Source: Bryobacteraceae bacterium (GTDB taxonomy: Bacteria > Acidobacteriota > Terriglobia > Bryobacterales > Bryobacteraceae). Taken from it: a DNA stretch of 64,000 nucleotides. Position 1 is the first letter of the stretch; every line of letters begins with the position of its first letter. Shown piece after piece: positions 4,866 through 25,543 of the stretch. Made by a program: the position numbers and the translations under genes. The notes beneath the pieces are model-generated. The model had not been told where the DNA came from, did no database searches, and worked only from the letters and a program-made list of their open reading frames with translations. The DNA is taken from positions 310,001 through 374,000 of the forward strand of contig JAIEMJ010000023.1 of NCBI GenBank assembly GCA_019752335.1, written 5' to 3'.

Positions 4866-4941
4866 CAACGGCCGGAAAGCTCCTTTGCCTGCGCGTTCCG
4901 TCAGGCTTATCGACCAAAACAAGGCCTTCCGCTAGTCCCGT

Positions 4942-5961
4942 TTACGGGAGGAAGCGGTAGTACCCCTTGCGCGCGCGGATGGTGACTCCGGGCTGGTTCA
5001 CCTTCACCTCGACCTTGCGGAAGGCCTTCTTGTCGTCCGTCGTCTCTGGCGAATAGCGGATGATGTACTGCGTCACCACCTCGCCCACCGTATCGGCCAC
5101 GGCGCGGAAGAGACCCTGCGCGATCGCGGCCGCGTAGCCGCCCGTCCCGACCTTCAAAGCGTAGTTGCCTTCGTCCGACGGCGTCGAGAGATAGCCCGAG
5201 ACGTCCTTGTAGACGCCCTGCAGCGGCTGCACCACGCGGCCGCCGGTCTCCTCCGCCAGCCGGTTCAGGTTCTTCTCGCCGTCCGAAGCAAAGCCAAAGG
5301 CCGCCGTCGAAACGCAGTAGACGGTCACCAGATTGCGCTGCGCCAGTTCCAGCACCTCTTCCAGGCCCTTCTTGCTGGCGTTGTCGTGGCCGTCGCCGAT
5401 GATGATGATCACGCGCCGCGGCTCAATCGGCTCACCCTTGACGAGGTTGCGGCTGGTGCAGGCCATGTAGATGGCGTCGTACATGGCGGCGCCGCCGCCG
5501 GGCTTCAGCTTGCGAATCTTCTCGAGCAGCTTGTCGCTGTCGGTGGTCGTGTTCACGGCCAGTTCAGCTTCGTTCGAATAGGTGATCAGGTAGCCGGCGA
5601 ACTTCGGATCGCCCGGCAGCAAGCTGAGAACCAGTTCCTGCGCGGCATCCAGGAACTTGGCCCAGTGCAGACGCTGCGCGTTCGACATGTCCAGCAGGAA
5701 CCCCGCGACCAAGGGCTGCTGCCGCTCACGGTTAAAGTAGGTGATCTGCTGCGGACGGCCTTCGTCCAAAATGGTGAAGTCGCCCTTGTCGAGATCGGAG
5801 ACGAAGCGGCCTTTGTCGTCCGTCACGGTGACGGGGACGATCACTTCGCTTACCGACACCTTCAGAGCGTCGACGACGGCGGGGACTTTCGCCGGTTGTT
5901 GCGCCAGAGCGGGTGCAGCGGAACTGGCCGCGAGCGAGGCTAAGAATGAGCGGCGAATCAT
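4942..5961 (-). CDS. VWFA-related acidobacterial domain protein
   Basis: This 339-residue exported protein has the acidobacterial VWFA-related fold (TIGR03436 type). It starts MIRRSFLASLAASSAAPALAQ, a signal peptide. A conserved N-terminal segment follows (VIVPVTVTDDKGRFVSDLDKGDFTILDEGRPQQITYF), then a von Willebrand A core with a degenerate metal site (LLDMSNAQ), VIIIIGDGHDN and TGGRVVQPL. It ends with a QYIIRYSP...GVTIRARKGYYR tail typical of the family. The start at 5961 is preferred over the longer frame because AGGAAACCACC lies just upstream. It is a separate minus-strand gene downstream of the DUF1501 gene. The function is not established; binding of a partner protein or surface polymer is likely. 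Confidence 0.85.
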   Translation of the reverse strand: MIRRSFLASLAASSAAPALAQQPAKVPAVVDALKVSVSEVIVPVTVTDDKGRFVSDLDKGDFTILDEGRPQQITYFNRERQQPLVAGFLLDMSNAQRLHWAKFLDAAQELVLSLLPGDPKFAGYLITYSNEAELAVNTTTDSDKLLEKIRKLKPGGGAAMYDAIYMACTSRNLVKGEPIEPRRVIIIIGDGHDNASKKGLEEVLELAQRNLVTVYCVSTAAFGFASDGEKNLNRLAEETGGRVVQPLQGVYKDVSGYLSTPSDEGNYALKVGTGGYAAAIAQGLFRAVADTVGEVVTQYIIRYSPETTDDKKAFRKVEVKVNQPGVTIRARKGYYRFLP

Positions 5962-18889: not shown

Positions 18890-19507
18890 CCACGCACCGA
18901 CGTAAAGAACGAAGGCAGCGCCCGCGCGCAATACGAAGCTCGCCATTTGGCCCGCAAAAGAGCTAACGGACGGGATCCACCAGAAGAGTTTCCACGGCAG
19001 CCAGCTGCCCACGACGGCCCAGGCAAAGACCGCCGCCAGGTAAGAGACGCTGAGCGGTACGGCGCGCCAGTCCCGCAGACCGCCCGCGCCATTCGCCACT
19101 CGGACCGCGACGGGCAGCAGCGTACGCAAAGTCAGAACCAGCAGGAGAATGGCGAGCACGGTGCGCGGGAGGAAGTCCAACTGCACCGGAGTGCGCGTCG
19201 CGAAGGTGAGCGCGGAGCCGAGCCACTGGCCGACGGCCGTCGTGTAGGAGTCGAGGTAGGCGAAGACGCCCAACACCAAAGCGACAATGCCGAGCCAGGC
19301 CAACATCGGCAAAGTGCGGCGAACCGCGGCGACCGGTTCGCGGTTGAAGGCGAGCGCCATCAGGTAGGCGACGAGCGTGAGCAGCCCCGCAGCCAGCAGG
19401 ACGGAGACTGCCGTGTTCCCGATGCTGGAGAGCCGCAGCCCGAGCCAGTAGTAAGCGAGCGCGAAGAAGACCAAGTTGCCCACGGCGTCGATCAGAAAGA
19501 GGCGCAT
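18839..19507 (-). CDS. multi-pass membrane protein, unknown function
   Basis: This 222-residue protein has about six hydrophobic segments (for example LVFFALAYYWLGL, VSVLLAAGLLTLVAYLMALAF, WLGIVALVLGVFAYL, TVLAILLLVLTLRTL, LAAVFAWAVVGSWL, FVLYVGAWLVFAGY). No domain is recognised. Its ATG shares one base with the stop of the alpha-2-macroglobulin gene, so it is translationally coupled to that gene and probably acts at the inner membrane in the same system. The 3' end overlaps the convergent SpoIID gene. Confidence 0.75.
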   Translation of the reverse strand: MRLFLIDAVGNLVFFALAYYWLGLRLSSIGNTAVSVLLAAGLLTLVAYLMALAFNREPVAAVRRTLPMLAWLGIVALVLGVFAYLDSYTTAVGQWLGSALTFATRTPVQLDFLPRTVLAILLLVLTLRTLLPVAVRVANGAGGLRDWRAVPLSVSYLAAVFAWAVVGSWLPWKLFWWIPSVSSFAGQMASFVLRAGAAFVLYVGAWLVFAGYCRAKTLTPER

Positions 19508-22500
19508 TACGGCTTCACCTGCACCGCGAGGGATTCGGTCGTCGACAGATACTCGGGCTGATACATGGGCATCACCCGCGCGGGGCTCGCGCGGAACTTG
19601 CCGGGGTTCACGACCTTGAAGAGCGAGAAGAAGGTGCCCTGGCCCGCGCTGAAGTAGGTCTTGAAGAGCGCGGCGCGGTCGTCGCGCAGTTCACGGCGCG
19701 TGGAGTAGCTGGTCCACCAGTCCGGCTTGTCGGCGAGTTCGTAGAGGTCGTCGCGCTCAATCAGTTCGACGCCGGCGGGCAGCGGATCTTCGAGCAGCAG
19801 ATAGCGCCAATCGCCGCCCGTGAGCGTCAAGCGGCTGGCGACGATGTCGCCGCTGTTGAGTTCACCAGTGACGCGTTCGAGCTGATAGACGATGCGGCCC
19901 GCGCGCTTCGAAGGCACCAGCCGGAAGTAGTCGCGCAAGAGATTCAAGGCGACTTTGCCCGTCTTCTGATACTTGTCCTCGGTGGAATAGTAGTTCGCGC
20001 GGGCCGACCAATAGAGCCGGCCATTGCCGGTGCGCGAGATGCTCACCTGGTTGCTCAGCGACGCGGGAATCTTCAGCGTCGCCGTACGGATGCCCATCAC
20101 GTCCTCCTGGGTGAAGCGCCGCGAGAGGACGCGCTTGCCGTTCACATCGACGTTCACCGTGAAGTCCGCCGCCAGTTCGCCGCTGCGCTTCAGGTATTCG
20201 GTGAGGCCGTCCACGGCCATCGCGGTCTGCTTGGTGGACGACCACCAGTAGCCTTCATTGCGATGCTCCGTGAGCCACAGCGCCGCCTTCGCCACCAGCG
20301 GACTCTCGGGCTTCACCCGCGCCAGCAGCTTCAAGCTCATGGCGGTGGCTTCGGTGGAAGTATCAAAGACGAAGCCGAGCACGTCGTCTCGGTCCCAGTT
20401 CCACCAGGCCTCCTGGCCATTCTGACGAGCCAGCTTCTCCAGCATGGTGACGGCCTCCTTCAGGCGCGCGTCCTTGCGGCGATCCAGTTCGAGCGCCAGC
20501 TGCGCCAGCGCCTGCGGTGAGAGGCGATCCCGCGCGGCCCAGACGCTGTCCACCTGTTGCGGCGTGGCTTGACCGGCCAGCCCCAAGGCATAGACCATGT
20601 AGGCGCGCGCGTCGGGGACGGCGCGCTCTTCGCGTTCGAACTCCTTCTTCAGCCAAGCCGCGCCCTTGTCTCGCGCTTCGTTCTGATTGGGCCGCGCGAA
20701 GCCCGCAGCGGCGGCGCGAGAGAAGCCTTCGACGACGAGGGCGGTCATATAGACCGACGAGTCATCCGTTTGCCACCAGCCCCAGCCGCCGTCGGGATGC
20801 TGGAAGTCGAGCAGGCGGTCGAGCCCGTCGTTCACCTTGGCTTGGAGGAGCTTGGGGTCCTGCGCGGACTTCAGCTTCAGTTCCTCAAAGGCCTTGGCGA
20901 CGATGAGATTCGGCAGCACGCTGGACATGGTCTGCTCGGTGCAGCCATAGGGGAACGTCGTGAGATAGTCGAGCGCGCCAAACAAAGCGCCGCCGATGGA
21001 AGGCGCCAAACGAAGCTCCACTTCGCGCGACTGGGGCACGGACGCGGCGGGAATCTCCAGCGTCGTCGACGCGCTGTTGCCGCTGAGCGCGCCGGAGCGA
21101 GAGACGCTAAGCGGCACGCCAAAGGGCTTCACCGGCAGCTTCAACTCCACGGCGTCGCTCTCGCCGGTGGAGAGCGCCTTGGCGAGAATCGTGGCCTCAC
21201 GCACCGACTTGGCCCGCACGCGGAAGCTGGCCGTCGCCGTGCCCTTCGAGGCGACGGTAACGTCGCGCGCGCCACCGTCGAGCAGTTCCAGGCCCGTCGC
21301 TTCCAGCGTCACTTTGACGCTCTTCTCGCCCTCCAGGTAGTTCTGCACCACCATGGTGAGCGTCACTTCGTCTTCTTCCGTGAAGAAGCGCGGCACCGCC
21401 GGACGCAGGATTAGATTCTTGCGGACGATCACCTTGTTGACCCCTTGGCCGACCCGCGTATCGCGGGTGACGCCCCGCGCGGTGGCGCGCCAGGTCGTCA
21501 GCGAGTCCGGGAATTCGAGCTTCGCCGTGGCGCGGCCGTCGGCGCCGGTAACCACGGCGGGCGCCCAATAGACCGTATCGGGGAAGGCCTTGCGGATGCG
21601 CGGCTCCGGCATCCGGTCCGGCTTCAGTTGCGCGAGCGAACGGCCGCTGGCCTGCGCCAGCAGCATGGCGCGCTCGCCGGCTTCGCCCGAGAAGAAATAC
21701 GAGAGCGAACTCTCTGTCGAGACGACGCTATAGACGCGCCCGTAGAAGTGCCGCAACGGGTCCGGCATGGTTTCGGGTCGAATGGCGTAGATGGCCTCAT
21801 CGACCACGCCCAAGGAGAGCTCCGCGCTGACGGGTTTACCCTGCCAGTCCTTCGCTTCCACGCTGTAGCTGGCCGCTTCGCCGGGCTTAAACTGCGCTTT
21901 CGACGGCGTCACCTTAACGTTAAGTTTTTGCTCCGTGGGAGGCACCTTCAGGCTCTTCGTGCCCTGGTAAAGCTGGCCCTTTTGGATGAAGGCCGCTGAG
22001 ACGTAGAAGTTCGGCGCGTAGTCCTGCCGGATGGGAATCTCGTAGATGAACGAGCCCGACGTGGCCGCGCGCGCTTCGTGCTGATGCAGGTCACGCCCCT
22101 CGACGCTGAGCAGCACATGCGCGCTGGGCACCCCGGTGACGATCAGCACTTTCGCGGTCTCGCCCGGCCGGTAGCTCTTCTTGTCGGGAACGATTTCGAT
22201 GGAGTTATCGCGCGCGGATTCGCTGCCGCCCTCCACCCAGAGGTAAGCGTAGCCCACGGCGTCGCGGCCTTCGGGAGTCCGCGCCACGACGCGCAAGCGG
22301 TAGCTGCCAGAGGCTGGCGCCGGAAACTCGGTGGTCGCCTCGCCTTCGAACGTCCGCCCGGCGTAGGTGGCGAGCACCTTCTGGGTCTTCTCGCGCCAGT
22401 CCGAAGTCAGCACTTCCACGCGGTAAGCCCCGGCTACCGGCGCACCCTCCAGGTCGCGCAGATTCACCTTCACCTGCACCGTCTGCCCCGGCGCGTAGAC

Positions 22501-24081
22501 GTAGCCGTTCGGCCGCGCGGTAACCGAGTAGCTCGCGTACGGCGCCACCACGACACCGGAGCCGCTGATCTCGCGCCGCGCGGCGTCGGTGACGCGCCCC
22601 TCAATGCGATACACCCAGCCGTGGCGGTCCTCTTCCTTCTCCGCCACCGGGTTCTCCACGCTGACGCTCAGCTTGCCGTCCGCGTTCGTCTTGCCGTCGA
22701 ACTGCGCGATCTCCTGCTGGCCCCAAGCGCTGGGATCGTCTTCGTCCTCCGCGTCGTCCCAGGGCGCCCAGTAGCGCGAGCGGTAGACAACGTACTTCAC
22801 CGCCGCCCCGGCCACCGGTTCGCCAAAGTAGTACTTGGCCTCGATCTCGGCCTCAATCGACGTGCCCTGCAGGAAGCGCTTTTTGTTGGGCGTCACCTTC
22901 ACTTCGTACTCCGGCTTCTTGTACTCCTCCACCTCGAAGTTGCCGGAGACCTTGCTCTCGCCGAGCTTCATCTCGACCGAGTACATGCCCAACGCGGCGC
23001 CATCGGGGACGGCGTAGTCGCCATGAATCGTACCGAAGCCCGAGACGTTGCGGACCTCGCGAAAGACGGACTTGCCTTCGGGATCCGTGATCTCGACGGT
23101 GGCTTTGGTATCGGACGGCAGGTCATAGCCCTTCGCCGTGGGCGCGCGGACGATGGCGCGATAGCCCAGCTTGTGGCCGGGCCGGTAAACGGGGCGATCG
23201 GTGTAGACGTAGCCGGTAAGCGAGTCGCGGTCGCCGCGATGGAAGCTGTAGCCGGGCAGCGCGTTGATGGCAAAGTCACTCTTCGGCGTGGCCATCACCA
23301 GGACGTCGTCGCCCTTAAAGTCAGCGAGCTTCAGCGTCACCAGTCCCAGCGCGTTCGTACGGCCTTCAGCGATGCGGCTGCGCTTCACCACCACGCTGAC
23401 GTCGCAGTTCGCTGCGGGCGCGCCGCTCTGCCGATCCACCACCATCGTTACCACTCGCCCCGGCAGGCTTTTGGTGATGAGCGCATAGTTCGACACGGAA
23501 ACAATCGTGTAAGCGCGCAGCACGCCGTTCGTCGCTTCGACCAGATACACTCCGGCCTTCGGCAAGTCCAGCGGCACGGTGACCGAGTCCCAGGGATTCT
23601 GTTTGGTTAACGACTGGCGGAACTTCGTCACTAGTTGCTGCTGATTCAGCAGCGGCACCAAGGCAAAGCTCGCCGGACCCCGCACCGCCGGCTTCGGCGT
23701 CGTGAACTCATGAATCCGCGTGCGCGATTCCCGCGTGAACTGCGCGCGGAAAGCATCCCGCACCGCCGACCGGTAAGCTTGCTTCCAGTCCTCAAACCGC
23801 TCGAGCCAAGTCAACTCGCGCGCCGGCCGCGGACTCTGCCCGCCAAACTGGTGCGGGTCCTCCAACTGCTCAAAGAACTTGCGCGGATCGTTGACGCGGT
23901 AGACGCGAAACTCCAGCGTGCCCAGGCCCGAACTCGACACCGTCACCGACGCCTTCTCGCCCACGCCGAACGTGCGGTTCGAAAGCAACGAGAAGTAGCG
24001 CGACTCGCCCTCTTCCTGCGCGGCAATCGGACAGGCGAGAAATACTGCGGTCGCCCACAGGAGCGGCTTAAGGCGCGGCAC
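19507..24081 (-). CDS. bacterial alpha-2-macroglobulin with intact thioester
   Basis: This 1524-residue periplasmic protein has an N-terminal signal (MPRLKPLLWATAVFLACPIAAQ) in which a weak lipobox FLAC is possible. A series of MG domains follows, with repeated YVYTDRPVYRPGHKL, EYKKPEYEVKV and GYVYAPGQTVQVKV stretches. A bait-like segment and the complement-like region come next. The thioester motif is present as FPYGCTEQTMS with Cys1047 and Gln1050, followed by a helical alpha-alpha toroid (LDRLLDFQHPDGGWGWW). In known bacterial A2Ms this traps proteases and may guard periplasmic repair. E. coli YfaS, of similar length, is reported to lack the thioester. The start is GTG at 24081, inside the DUF1175 gene by 14 bp. 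Confidence 0.9.
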   Translation of the reverse strand: MPRLKPLLWATAVFLACPIAAQEEGESRYFSLLSNRTFGVGEKASVTVSSSGLGTLEFRVYRVNDPRKFFEQLEDPHQFGGQSPRPARELTWLERFEDWKQAYRSAVRDAFRAQFTRESRTRIHEFTTPKPAVRGPASFALVPLLNQQQLVTKFRQSLTKQNPWDSVTVPLDLPKAGVYLVEATNGVLRAYTIVSVSNYALITKSLPGRVVTMVVDRQSGAPAANCDVSVVVKRSRIAEGRTNALGLVTLKLADFKGDDVLVMATPKSDFAINALPGYSFHRGDRDSLTGYVYTDRPVYRPGHKLGYRAIVRAPTAKGYDLPSDTKATVEITDPEGKSVFREVRNVSGFGTIHGDYAVPDGAALGMYSVEMKLGESKVSGNFEVEEYKKPEYEVKVTPNKKRFLQGTSIEAEIEAKYYFGEPVAGAAVKYVVYRSRYWAPWDDAEDEDDPSAWGQQEIAQFDGKTNADGKLSVSVENPVAEKEEDRHGWVYRIEGRVTDAARREISGSGVVVAPYASYSVTARPNGYVYAPGQTVQVKVNLRDLEGAPVAGAYRVEVLTSDWREKTQKVLATYAGRTFEGEATTEFPAPASGSYRLRVVARTPEGRDAVGYAYLWVEGGSESARDNSIEIVPDKKSYRPGETAKVLIVTGVPSAHVLLSVEGRDLHQHEARAATSGSFIYEIPIRQDYAPNFYVSAAFIQKGQLYQGTKSLKVPPTEQKLNVKVTPSKAQFKPGEAASYSVEAKDWQGKPVSAELSLGVVDEAIYAIRPETMPDPLRHFYGRVYSVVSTESSLSYFFSGEAGERAMLLAQASGRSLAQLKPDRMPEPRIRKAFPDTVYWAPAVVTGADGRATAKLEFPDSLTTWRATARGVTRDTRVGQGVNKVIVRKNLILRPAVPRFFTEEDEVTLTMVVQNYLEGEKSVKVTLEATGLELLDGGARDVTVASKGTATASFRVRAKSVREATILAKALSTGESDAVELKLPVKPFGVPLSVSRSGALSGNSASTTLEIPAASVPQSREVELRLAPSIGGALFGALDYLTTFPYGCTEQTMSSVLPNLIVAKAFEELKLKSAQDPKLLQAKVNDGLDRLLDFQHPDGGWGWWQTDDSSVYMTALVVEGFSRAAAAGFARPNQNEARDKGAAWLKKEFEREERAVPDARAYMVYALGLAGQATPQQVDSVWAARDRLSPQALAQLALELDRRKDARLKEAVTMLEKLARQNGQEAWWNWDRDDVLGFVFDTSTEATAMSLKLLARVKPESPLVAKAALWLTEHRNEGYWWSSTKQTAMAVDGLTEYLKRSGELAADFTVNVDVNGKRVLSRRFTQEDVMGIRTATLKIPASLSNQVSISRTGNGRLYWSARANYYSTEDKYQKTGKVALNLLRDYFRLVPSKRAGRIVYQLERVTGELNSGDIVASRLTLTGGDWRYLLLEDPLPAGVELIERDDLYELADKPDWWTSYSTRRELRDDRAALFKTYFSAGQGTFFSLFKVVNPGKFRASPARVMPMYQPEYLSTTESLAVQVKP

Positions 24082-24928
24082 TCAGAATCCTCCAACGATA
24101 CAAACCCAGAAACACGGGGTTCGCTTCCAGCGGCCGCCAGCGCGGCTGCGGATGCGCCAAAAGCTCCTCACGCGACAGCCTGCGCATCTCACCTGGCCGC
24201 CCTTCTACCGGTCCCGTATGGTACACAATCCACGCTTCCGGCCCTCGCGTAAACTCGCTCTTCCCGAGATAGATCATCGCATGGAAGGGCATGCGTTGCC
24301 CAACCTGTTCGAAAAAGAGCAGGTCGCCGGGCCGGGCGTCGGCCAGGCGGCGGCTGACGAAAGCGGCGTTCCACTGGCGCAGCGTCCGCGCATCGGCGAA
24401 CTGGCCGTACGTGCCAGCGCCGGTGCGAAACAGGCGCGTCCCTGGATTCACCGCGGCATCAATCGGCGGCAAGGCCGGCAAAGCCGGCAGATCGATCGTC
24501 TTCAGCCACGCGGCGTCGTGCTTGCGGAGCGTCTCCCGGTAGGCGAAGCGCAGCAGCGCCGCGCAGTCAATGACGTCCTTGGCGCGCCGCGCGGGCGGCA
24601 AATGGTATTGGCTCTCGGCCAGAAACGTGAACCAGAGCCGGAACGCGCGCTGGTCAGCCGGATGAGTGAGCCGGGCACTGTCGTTTTCCTGGGAAACGAA
24701 GCGAAATCTGGAGAGCCCGCCGCGTGAGCGGCGGGGCGCGTTTCGACGTTGATCCGCAAAAACGCCCCTAAAACCGCCATATTCCGTGTCGGAGGCCCCA
24801 TCGCTCACGCGATGGGCTCTTACGGTCGTGCGAGCCAGACATATCTTTTCTGAGCCGCTGACGCGACGGTCTGGAGACTCCGGCTGCGCGGGCCACAGCA
24901 GGAGGGCGAATATAAACAGTCCGGGCAC
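24068..24928 (-). CDS. DUF1175 (YfaT-like) NlpC/P60-like protein with an in-frame insert
   Basis: This 286-residue protein is like E. coli YfaT (DUF1175), which travels with A2M genes. It has a signal peptide at residues 1-15 (MPGLFIFALLLWPAQ, from a GTG). The catalytic part starts at about residue 71 (SRFRFVSQENDSARL), with a DCAALLRFAYRE motif holding the Cys and a FHAMIYLG segment with the His. That is an NlpC/P60-like Cys-His pattern. Residues 16-70 have no family character and coincide with a 152-bp run of GC-rich hairpins. The frame stays open through it. Without it the protein would be about 230 residues, close to the YfaT length. It is upstream of and coupled to the A2M gene. Confidence 0.75.
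   Translation of the reverse strand: MPGLFIFALLLWPAQPESPDRRVSGSEKICLARTTVRAHRVSDGASDTEYGGFRGVFADQRRNAPRRSRGGLSRFRFVSQENDSARLTHPADQRAFRLWFTFLAESQYHLPPARRAKDVIDCAALLRFAYRETLRKHDAAWLKTIDLPALPALPPIDAAVNPGTRLFRTGAGTYGQFADARTLRQWNAAFVSRRLADARPGDLLFFEQVGQRMPFHAMIYLGKSEFTRGPEAWIVYHTGPVEGRPGEMRRLSREELLAHPQPRWRPLEANPVFLGLYRWRILSAAP
24716..24867. repeat. REP-like cluster of three GTGA/TCAC-loop hairpins inside the DUF1175 frame
   Basis: Three short palindromes lie here. The first is CCCGCCGC-GTGA-GCGGCGGG (24716-24735), with an 8-bp stem. The second is CCCATCGC-TCAC-GCGATGGG (24797-24816), with an 8-bp stem. The third is GCCGC-TGAC-GCGAC (24854-24867), with a 5-bp stem containing one C-A mismatch on this strand. 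All have 4-base loops of GTGA/TCAC/TGAC type. The first two are in opposite orientation, as in REP pairs (BIMEs). The unit lies within the DUF1175 gene, between signal peptide and catalytic part. I cannot see a second copy in the window, so calling it a dispersed repeat is inference. Confidence 0.55.
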
Positions 24929-24951: not shown

Positions 24952-24983
24952 TTGACTCCGTAGCACGGTACGGAGTTTAGAGT
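24952..24983 (+). promoter_or_regulatory. MerR-family operator/promoter for the metallothionein-like gene
   Basis: A -35 TTGACT (24952-24957) and a -10-like TAGAGT (24978-24983) are separated by 20 bp, the long spacer typical of MerR-activated promoters. Inside lies a perfect inverted repeat, ACTCCGTA (24955-24962), 6 bp, TACGGAGT (24969-24976), 22 bp in all. The layout and the ACTCC...GGAGT ends match the ZntR/CadR/PbrR operators, where the dyad begins within the -35. It is followed by AAGGAGGG and an ATG at 25009. This would make transcription respond to Zn, Cd, Pb or a similar ion. Confidence 0.85.
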
Positions 24984-25008
24984 TAAGGTGAAAGGAGGGT
25001 CAACGAAG

Positions 25009-25152
25009 ATGACCCCAACGAATGACACTGCTAAGAAATGCTGCGACAAATGTACCTGCGCGGAATGCCATGGTACCGCTTGTAAGTGCGACCAGAGCAA
25101 AGGCAAGTGCGGCTGCAACTGCGGCTGTGGCTGCGCCTGCTGCGAAAAGTAG
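25009..25152 (+). CDS. metallothionein-like Cys-rich protein, 47 residues
   Basis: This short ORF encodes 47 residues with 14 Cys and one His. The first 10 residues are MTPTNDTAKK. After that, Cys occur at 11, 12, 15, 17, 20, 25, 27, 34, 36, 38, 40, 42, 44 and 45, largely as CxC steps (GCNCGCGCACC). A strong ribosome site AAGGAGGG (24992-24999) lies 9 bp before the ATG, downstream of the MerR-type operator. The 3' end overlaps the MerR gene. Composition and context support a cytoplasmic metal-binding metallothionein-like protein. The Cys spacing is not that of SmtA/BmtA, so the family may be new. Confidence 0.85.
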   Translation: MTPTNDTAKKCCDKCTCAECHGTACKCDQSKGKCGCNCGCGCACCEK

Positions 25153-25543
25153 AACCATCGCCCAAGCGGCGCGCGAGGCGGGGGTGCATGTCGAGACGAT
25201 CCGCTACTACGAGCGCCTCGGCCTGATTCCCCGCCCCGAAGCGCGTTCGGGCTACCGCCAATATCCCCAAGCCACGGTCGAACGCATCCGCTCCATCAAG
25301 CGCGCCCAGGACTTCGGCTTCTCCCTACGCGAAATCAACGAACTCTACGCCATGACCGCCACCAGCGACTCCTCCTGCCAGGCGATGTGCGCCAAGGTGG
25401 AAGCGAAGGTCCGCGAAATCGAGACCCGGATCGCGGCCCTGGTGGAACTGCGCGACGAACTGCAAGGCATGGTGAAGCGCAGCACCAAGCAAGGCCCAGC
25501 GACAAATTGCCAGGTCTACCAAGCCCTGCGCCGCGCCACCTGA
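25127..25543 (+). CDS. MerR-family metal-responsive regulator
   Basis: This regulator of about 138 residues has the MerR N-terminal helix-turn-helix RTIAQAAREAGVHVETIRYYERLGLI, a wing (RSGYRQYP), the long dimerisation helix and a C-terminal loop. Possible metal ligands are Cys84 and Cys88 (SSCQAMC) and Cys128 (GPATNCQVYQAL). Cys84 and Cys128 match Cys82 and Cys126 of mercury MerR, while the middle Cys117 is replaced by Ser119. The start is uncertain. GTG at 25127 gives a typical length; ATGs at 25070 and 25022 are in frame but read through the metallothionein-like gene. It lies downstream of that gene and probably controls the dyad at 24955-24976 and itself. Confidence 0.85.
   Translation: MAAPAAKSRTIAQAAREAGVHVETIRYYERLGLIPRPEARSGYRQYPQATVERIRSIKRAQDFGFSLREINELYAMTATSDSSCQAMCAKVEAKVREIETRIAALVELRDELQGMVKRSTKQGPATNCQVYQALRRAT

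What the first reader, a model, noticed from the sequence alone, without database searches (positions are those of the whole stretch)
24952..25543. Unreported metallothionein-MerR metal-response operon with a ZntR/CadR-like operator
A 47-residue protein with 14 Cys (mostly CxC steps) sits between a textbook MerR-type promoter and a MerR gene. The promoter has TTGACT, a 20-bp spacer and a perfect 8+8 dyad; the MerR gene overlaps the Cys-rich gene out of frame. Known bacterial metallothioneins such as SmtA are controlled by ArsR-type SmtB; a MerR-controlled one with this Cys layout is unusual. The gene is short enough to be missed by standard annotation. The Cys set of the MerR (C84, C88, C128) also lacks the middle ligand of mercury MerR.
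Basis: partly seen in the sequence, partly recalled or inferred. Interest (0 to 1): 0.85.

Follow-up and report, generated by a model that had tools for sequence, protein, structure and literature searches.

The report
Mercury-type regulator driving a metallothionein gene
A soil-type bacterium carries a two-gene unit in which a metal-sensing switch related to the mercury-resistance regulator appears to turn on a tiny metal-trapping protein and itself, a pairing conserved in relatives that I did not find described in print.

Summary
Window 25009-25152 (+) encodes a 47-residue protein with 14 Cys, between a MerR-type promoter (24952-24983; 20-bp spacer, perfect 8+6+8 dyad) and an overlapping MerR gene (25127-25543). 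I found 17 distinct loci with this order: 15 Acidobacteriota, 2 Deinococcota. The short ORF is under purifying selection. The linked MerRs fall on one side of a branch, and 17 of 17 share C84, C88 and C128; Cys88 is absent from 22 of 22 unlinked MerRs. One relative keeps the Cys-rich gene without such a MerR, and its operator dyad is degraded.

Best reading: a self-contained, autoregulated sequestration operon switched on by a soft thiophilic metal (Hg, Cd or Pb are my candidates). Metal identity, metal binding and DNA binding are untested. The peptides scanned match no Pfam (13 peptides) or NCBIfam (5) model. Ten searches of an open library found no MerR-controlled metallothionein operon; nearest is CadR-controlled Zrd.

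The parts
24952..24983 (+). MerR-type promoter: -35 TTGACT (24952-24957), 20-bp spacer, -10 TAGAGT (24978-24983)
   Evidence: same spacing in 17 of 17 linked loci, 14 of which came from the MerR protein search and so were not selected for spacing
24955..24976 (+). predicted MerR operator, perfect 8+6+8 dyad ACTCCGTA-gcacgg-TACGGAGT inside the spacer
   Evidence: only such dyad in the window; promoter 26 of 32 bases identical to pRA2 merT promoter, 19 of 32 to zntA; dyad degraded in G191, which has the Cys-rich gene but no linked-type MerR
24991..24999 (+). Shine-Dalgarno AAAGGAGGG of the Cys-rich gene
   Evidence: comparable site in 13 of 17 linked loci, absent in the four 9-Cys loci where ATG lies 6 nt after the -10
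25009..25152 (+). metallothionein-like gene, 47 aa, 14 Cys, KCCxxCxC near the start and CxCxCxCxCC at the end
25127..25543 (+). MerR-family regulator, 138 aa from GTG, overlaps the Cys-rich gene by 26 nt out of frame; C84, C88, C128
   Evidence: AlphaFold2 model mean pLDDT 86.9; solved matches CadR, PbrR691, CueR, Tn501 MerR

Best explanation
This is a self-contained metal-sequestration operon. Apo-MerR sits on the dyad inside the over-long 20-bp spacer and keeps the promoter off. A soft thiophilic metal ion (I favour Hg(II), Cd(II) or Pb(II)) binds a Cys site made of C84 and C88 at the start of the dimerisation helix and C128 in the loop before the last helix. MerR then untwists the promoter and transcription starts. 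The first product is a small, nearly all-thiolate metallothionein that buffers the metal in the cytoplasm. The second is MerR itself, translated from a start inside or just after the metallothionein gene, so that sensor and buffer rise together. Shown here: gene order, promoter geometry, conservation, purifying selection, co-inheritance, the shared Cys set. Inferred: DNA binding, activation, metal binding, metal identity, translational coupling.
For: 17 distinct loci with promoter + Cys-rich ORF + MerR. Of 43 MerR matches at E<=1e-20 in 257 genomes of the order, 14 have both the Cys-rich ORF directly upstream and Cx3C, 27 have neither, one is a decayed copy of the window's own pair, one (L111) was not read by my script. 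Linked MerRs are one side of a branch, support 82/73, 80% of bootstrap trees. C84, C88, C128 in 17 of 17; Cys at 88 in 0 of 22 unlinked. dN/dS 0.03-0.50 in 10 of 11 pairs of peptides genes (not all independent), the eleventh saturated. In the predicted MerR fold C84 and C88 start helix 84-118 and C128 directly precedes helix 129-137. The window's operator resembles a mer promoter, and the dyad is degraded in the one genome without the MerR.
Against: No expression, binding or metal data exist here. The tree split has moderate support, no AU test was run, and the Deinococcota pair sits on the far side of the midpoint root. G191 keeps the Cys-rich gene without the MerR, so the pair is not obligatory. 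Dyads in the distant loci are weaker: 6-8 of 12 mirrored pairs in 8 of 17, worst L080 with 248 of 5000 shuffles as good. Cys are not always kept: L033 against L083 keeps 10 of 15. The unit is patchy: the peptide profile found 2 of 396 sampled Acidobacteriota genomes, both in the window's family, and 2 of 111 Deinococcota, though this profile is weak. The promoter does not identify the metal: unlinked MerRs of the order have similar 20-bp promoters, and so do two plasmid MerRs that stand ahead of P-type ATPase genes (25 of 32 bases shared with the window). By fold, CadR ranks above mercury MerR, within a tie.
Confidence: 0.8

Rival explanations
1. The Cys-rich peptide is not a metal store but a metal-handling partner of the sensor: it delivers metal to, or withdraws it from, MerR, as a buffer or feedback damper tuning the switch.
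For: Overlap or tight spacing of the two genes behind one promoter; no metal pump or mer gene recognised by eye beside the pairs listed; MerA over its cut-off in only 1 of 17 genomes.
Against: 9-15 Cys in 31-47 residues exceeds what a one-ion chaperone needs; six columns are invariant among 18 peptides and all are Cys, so no shared non-Cys surface is seen.
Confidence: 0.12
2. A redox or electrophile response: the Cys-rich peptide is a thiol sink and the MerR senses oxidation through the C84-x3-C88 pair.
For: An extra Cys specific to the linked MerRs; the P. aeruginosa metallothionein PmtA is reported in oxidative stress (abstract start in listing).
Against: C128 is kept as well, which fits a three-thiolate metal site; SoxR model scores 53.7 bits for the window MerR against 108.4 for mercury MerR; operator is mer-type.
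Confidence: 0.06
3. Chance open reading frame upstream of a MerR gene, or an artefact of Cys/Gly-rich overlapping frames.
For: The region is open in two frames, and two other short ORFs of at least 20% Cys occur in the window.
Against: 17 linked loci, low dN/dS, Cys kept while codons swap TGC/TGT, Shine-Dalgarno at a fixed place in 13 of 17.
Confidence: 0.02

Closest known systems
Mercury MerR (TIGR02051; Tn501 MerR 5crl, B. megaterium MerR 4ua1) and the mer promoter
   Same: Highest-scoring NCBIfam model for 8 of 8 linked MerRs tested; best solved sequence match 4ua1; window promoter 26 of 32 bases like pRA2 merT; first and last Cys ligands in place
   Different: 103.5-119.1 bits against a cut-off of 150.85; extra C88; middle Cys replaced by Ser in the window; linked gene is metallothionein-like, with no merT/P/A recognised beside it
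CadR-controlled Zrd of Pseudomonas aeruginosa (PMC12301328, passages read)
   Same: MerR-family sensor driving a small, previously unannotated Cys-containing protein proposed to sequester metal
   Different: Zrd has two zinc ribbons (CXXC-N10-CXXC), lies between opdD and PA1026, and CadR is reported not to autoregulate; not a CxC-rich peptide in one operon with its sensor
SmtA/BmtA-type metallothioneins (PF02069) under ArsR/SmtB-type regulators such as SmtB, AzuR, BxmR
   Same: Small Cys-rich metal-buffer protein under a metal sensor
   Different: No PF02069 match; at most one His per peptide; sensor of another family; one transcript direction, while smtA and smtB are divergent (PMC7387436 passage)
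MymT of Mycobacterium tuberculosis under RicR (CsoR family) (passage)
   Same: Copper-protective metallothionein under a metal sensor
   Different: Different regulator family; sequence relation not tested

Membership tests
MerR-family metal sensors | N-terminal MerR winged HTH, long dimerisation helix, short C-terminal metal loop | tested here: met
   PF13411, PF09278, PF00376 over cut-off; AlphaFold2 model and matches to CadR, PbrR691, CueR, MerR with Z 12.0-13.2, rmsd 1.8-2.3 over 118-129 residues for most of the top rows
MerR-family metal sensors | operator dyad in a 19-20 bp promoter spacer (spacer range recalled) | tested here: met
   20 bp in 17 of 17 linked loci; dyad strong in the window, weaker in distant loci
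Mercury MerR (TIGR02051 equivalog) | score over curated cut-off 150.85 bits | tested here: not met
   window 108.4; 8 linked MerRs 103.5-119.1; pRA2 MerR as positive control 178.8
Mercury MerR (TIGR02051 equivalog) | three Cys ligands C82/C117/C126 (Tn501 numbering, recalled) | tested here: not met
   first and last present (C84, C128), middle is Ser in the window; C88 added
CadR/PbrR (TIGR02047) and ZntR (TIGR02043) | score over curated cut-offs | tested here: not met
   87 against 151.45 and 75.5 against 167.95 bits for the window MerR
Prokaryotic metallothionein SmtA type (PF02069) | match to Metallothio_Pro over its cut-off | tested here: not met
   0 of 13 peptides match any Pfam model (5 of the 18 peptides not scanned); 0 of 17 genomes over cut-off, none of the 8 weak matches at these loci; 4 of 14 control genomes ring, Synechococcus elongatus among them, one over cut-off. 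Composition filters may lower sensitivity for Cys-rich queries
Metallothionein in the general sense | small, Cys-rich, with CxC/CC/CxxC arrays | tested here: met
   31-47 aa, 9-15 Cys in 18 peptides
Metallothionein in the general sense | binds several metal ions in thiolate clusters | not testable with these tools
   needs purified peptide and mass spectrometry

The most novel reading that the evidence does not exclude
A separate branch of MerR sensors has moved a metal ligand from the middle position onto the dimerisation helix (C84-x3-C88 with C128) and works with its own family of metallothioneins. Bacteria that mostly lack mercuric reductase would thus answer mercury-class metals by autoregulated sequestration in place of reduction or export, in two phyla.
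Probability: 0.4. Interest if true: 0.75.

Novelty: new variant of a known kind. Interest (0 to 1): 0.62.

Why it matters
In the papers I saw, bacterial metallothioneins are reported from few lineages and sit under ArsR/SmtB-type repressors or CsoR-type RicR. A metallothionein-like family in one operon with a MerR activator would add a regulatory class, and the conserved change in Cys ligands gives a natural set of 17 sensors for asking how MerR proteins change metal selectivity. The genes are short enough to be skipped by annotation, so the family may be undercounted. The operon is also a compact candidate for a metal biosensor.

Tried and rejected
Rejected: (a) 'ZntR/CadR-like operator' for the window: 26 of 32 bases like pRA2 merT, 19 of 32 like zntA. 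This is not uniform: of 17 linked promoters 14 are nearer merT than zntA, L071 and L073 tie at 22, and L080 is nearer zntA (23 against 20). No cadA promoter was compared. (b) Chance ORF. (c) SmtA-type metallothionein: no PF02069 match. (d) Relatives with solved structure: the A1 profile matched no PDB chain at E<=10. (f) A mer operon nearby: none recognised among ORFs read by eye; MerA over its cut-off in 1 of 17 genomes, G164, which does carry the pair. (g) A wider regulon in the own genome: a strict 22-base operator pattern matched once, at this site; its backward control also matched once, so this is weak. (h) The second MerR copy in the own genome (G000:C4) is decayed: 90.9% over 453 bp, 3 gaps, no promoter in the matched part, first Cys changed to Arg.

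Led nowhere: the weak peptide matches (E 0.005-0.1) were only screened for ORFs with at least 6 Cys and 13% Cys. Profile A2 searches were weak. 6 of 22 genome contigs pattern matches (L075-L078, L084, L085) had no MerR and look like chance. L111 was left out of the MerR count because my script's motif did not match it. One search used a dyad centre off by one base; one search replaces it.

Selection to note: the genome contigs pattern imposes the 20-bp spacer and the CC..C.C start, so loci found only there (L074, L081, L089) do not test those features; the other 14 came from the MerR protein search. Alignment A2 includes the G191 orphan, making 18 peptides for 17 pairs. Duplicate loci of one contig (for example L038 and L079) were counted once, judged by equal contig length and sequence.

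Literature: ten searches; passages read of PMC12301328, PMC12193353, PMC10141476, PMC7387436, PMC11591864; all other papers as search listings only. Nothing I saw described a MerR-controlled metallothionein operon. Subscription journals and preprints are mostly not held.

Full report
What is there. At 25009-25152 (+) lies an ORF of 47 codons with 14 Cys and one His, preceded by AAAGGAGGG and by TTGACT-20 bp-TAGAGT. The spacer region holds ACTCCGTA-gcacgg-TACGGAGT, the only perfect 8+6+8 dyad in the window, in the only TTGACY-N20-TA...T site. A MerR gene follows: GTG 25127 to stop 25543, overlapping the first gene by 26 nt out of frame. It is a MerR by Pfam, NCBIfam and predicted structure.

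Conservation. One-sequence search of 257 genomes of the order gave a clear match to the peptide in a same-genus genome (64%) and weaker ones, later borne out, in G191 and G194. The MerR was more telling: 43 matches at E<=1e-20. 14 have a Cys-rich ORF of 31-47 codons directly upstream and a MerR with Cx3C; 27 have neither; one is a decayed second copy in the own genome; one (L111) my script did not read. A pattern scan of genome contigs (one genome for each of 84,980 species; MerR promoter followed by CC-x2-C-x-C codons) gave 22 matches, 16 of them such pairs. Together there are 17 distinct pairs, window included: 15 Acidobacteriota (titles Bryobacter, Bryobacteraceae, Bryobacterales or Acidobacteria) and 2 Deinococcota (Truepera, uncultured Meiothermus). 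A profile of 18 peptides found 2 of 396 genomes sampled across the phylum, both in the window's family, and 2 of 111 Deinococcota, so the unit is patchy; that profile is weak.

Selection. In 10 of 11 close pairs dN/dS was 0.03-0.50; the eleventh was saturated, and not all pairs are independent. Window against its same-genus relative: dN/dS 0.14, Cys kept in 14 of 15 columns with five TGC/TGT swaps, 16 of 32 non-Cys columns identical. The loosest pair, L033 and L083, keeps 10 of 15 Cys. The alignment has invariant C11, C12, C15, C17, C40, C45.

The regulator. The 17 linked MerRs among 39 rows are one side of a branch (support 82/73; 80% of bootstrap trees). C84, C88 and C128 are in 17 of 17. 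At position 88 none of 22 unlinked MerRs has Cys, while all 22 have the middle Cys that the window has replaced with Ser; the first Cys is in 19 of 22. Eleven of the 17 linked MerRs still have a Cys at or near the middle position; the window and five near relatives do not. In the model C84 starts the long helix 84-118, C88 is one turn on, C128 precedes the last helix. I infer that C88 took over a ligand role. All 8 linked MerRs tested score best with mercury MerR, 103.5-119.1 bits against 150.85 needed; CadR/PbrR and ZntR models score lower. The best solved sequence match is B. megaterium MerR; by fold, CadR leads within a tie.

The operator. All 17 promoters have the 20-bp spacer; 14 were found by protein search, without selection for it. 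The window's promoter shares 26 of 32 bases with the merT promoter of plasmid pRA2, whose MerR passes the mercury cut-off, and 19 of 32 with E. coli zntA. Across the 17, merT identity is 20-29 and zntA identity 17-23; 14 are nearer merT, two tie, L080 is nearer zntA. Similar 20-bp promoters also precede unlinked MerRs of the order and two plasmid MerRs ahead of P-type ATPase genes (25 of 32 bases shared with the window), so the promoter places the system in the mercury-type group without naming the metal. Dyads range from 6 to 11 of 12 mirrored pairs; the weakest, L080, is matched by 248 of 5000 shuffles. A natural test: G191 (99% complete) has the peptide gene but its only match to the linked-MerR profile at E<=1e-8 is a Cys-less, HspR-like protein (name recalled), and there the dyad is gone (5 of 12, reached by 1075 of 5000 shuffles), while its congener G194 with the MerR keeps it (9 of 12; 5 of 5000). 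It is one case.

Surroundings. The flanking large ORFs differ between lineages and are shared only among close relatives; I recognised no metal pump, reductase or mer gene, reading ORF starts by eye without a family scan, and one SulP-like permease lies about 3 kb from the Meiothermus pair. MerA passes its cut-off in 1 of 17 genomes (G164) and PF02069 in none. In G164 a separate locus with that MerA match has its own mer-like promoter. In the own genome a strict operator pattern matches only here, but its backward control also matches once.

Mechanism. Best supported: metal-bound MerR activates a bicistronic transcript giving a thiolate buffer and more MerR. The candidate MerR starts nearest the helix-turn-helix lie from about 35 nt inside to about 18 nt after the end of the peptide gene, which suggests translational coupling. 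In the four loci with 9-Cys peptides the ATG lies 6 nt after the -10, suggesting leaderless messages. These last steps are inferred; activation by untwisting of a long spacer is established for the MerR family (recalled).

Known or new. Control of known bacterial metallothioneins by SmtB/ArsR-type regulators and RicR is in the passages; AzuR is in a title (listing). The nearest published case I saw is CadR-driven Zrd, a zinc-ribbon protein. Ten searches of the open library found no MerR-metallothionein operon. I rate it a new variant of a known kind: known sensor family, known functional class of peptide, new combination, with a changed ligand set and a peptide family that matched no curated model where scanned (Pfam 13 of 18 peptides; NCBIfam 5 of 18).

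Noticed in passing
L061 2222-2673 (-), G000:C4 of the own genome: Decayed second copy of the 3' end of the Cys-rich gene and the MerR: 90.9% over 453 bp, 3 gaps, C84 changed to Arg; it follows a ClpB-like gene (judged by eye).
   Followed up: partly
L064 4734-4862 (-), genome G191: Orphan Cys-rich gene with a MerR-spaced promoter whose dyad is degraded; a second 52-residue Cys-rich ORF (11 Cys) lies just upstream at 4922-5080 (-).
   Followed up: partly
L070, L073, L086, L089 (9-Cys type loci): The peptide ATG lies 6 nt after the -10 hexamer with no Shine-Dalgarno, which suggests a leaderless message.
   Followed up: no
window 24068-24928 (-) and 19507-24081 (-): A DUF1175 gene (PF06672) ends its 5' side 23 bp from the -35 of the operon, divergently, and overlaps a long gene that looks like an alpha-2-macroglobulin (by eye); whether the MerR site affects it is untested.
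   Followed up: no
L096, L097 (Leisingera and Methylobacterium plasmids): Among the plasmid MerRs nearest to the window's, these two are followed by P-type ATPase genes (the first also by CcdA) and have mer-like promoters.
   Followed up: partly
L115 623-654 (+), genome G164: G164 carries both the linked pair and a MerA match over cut-off; near that match lies a mer-like promoter, so the two MerRs could share operators.
   Followed up: no
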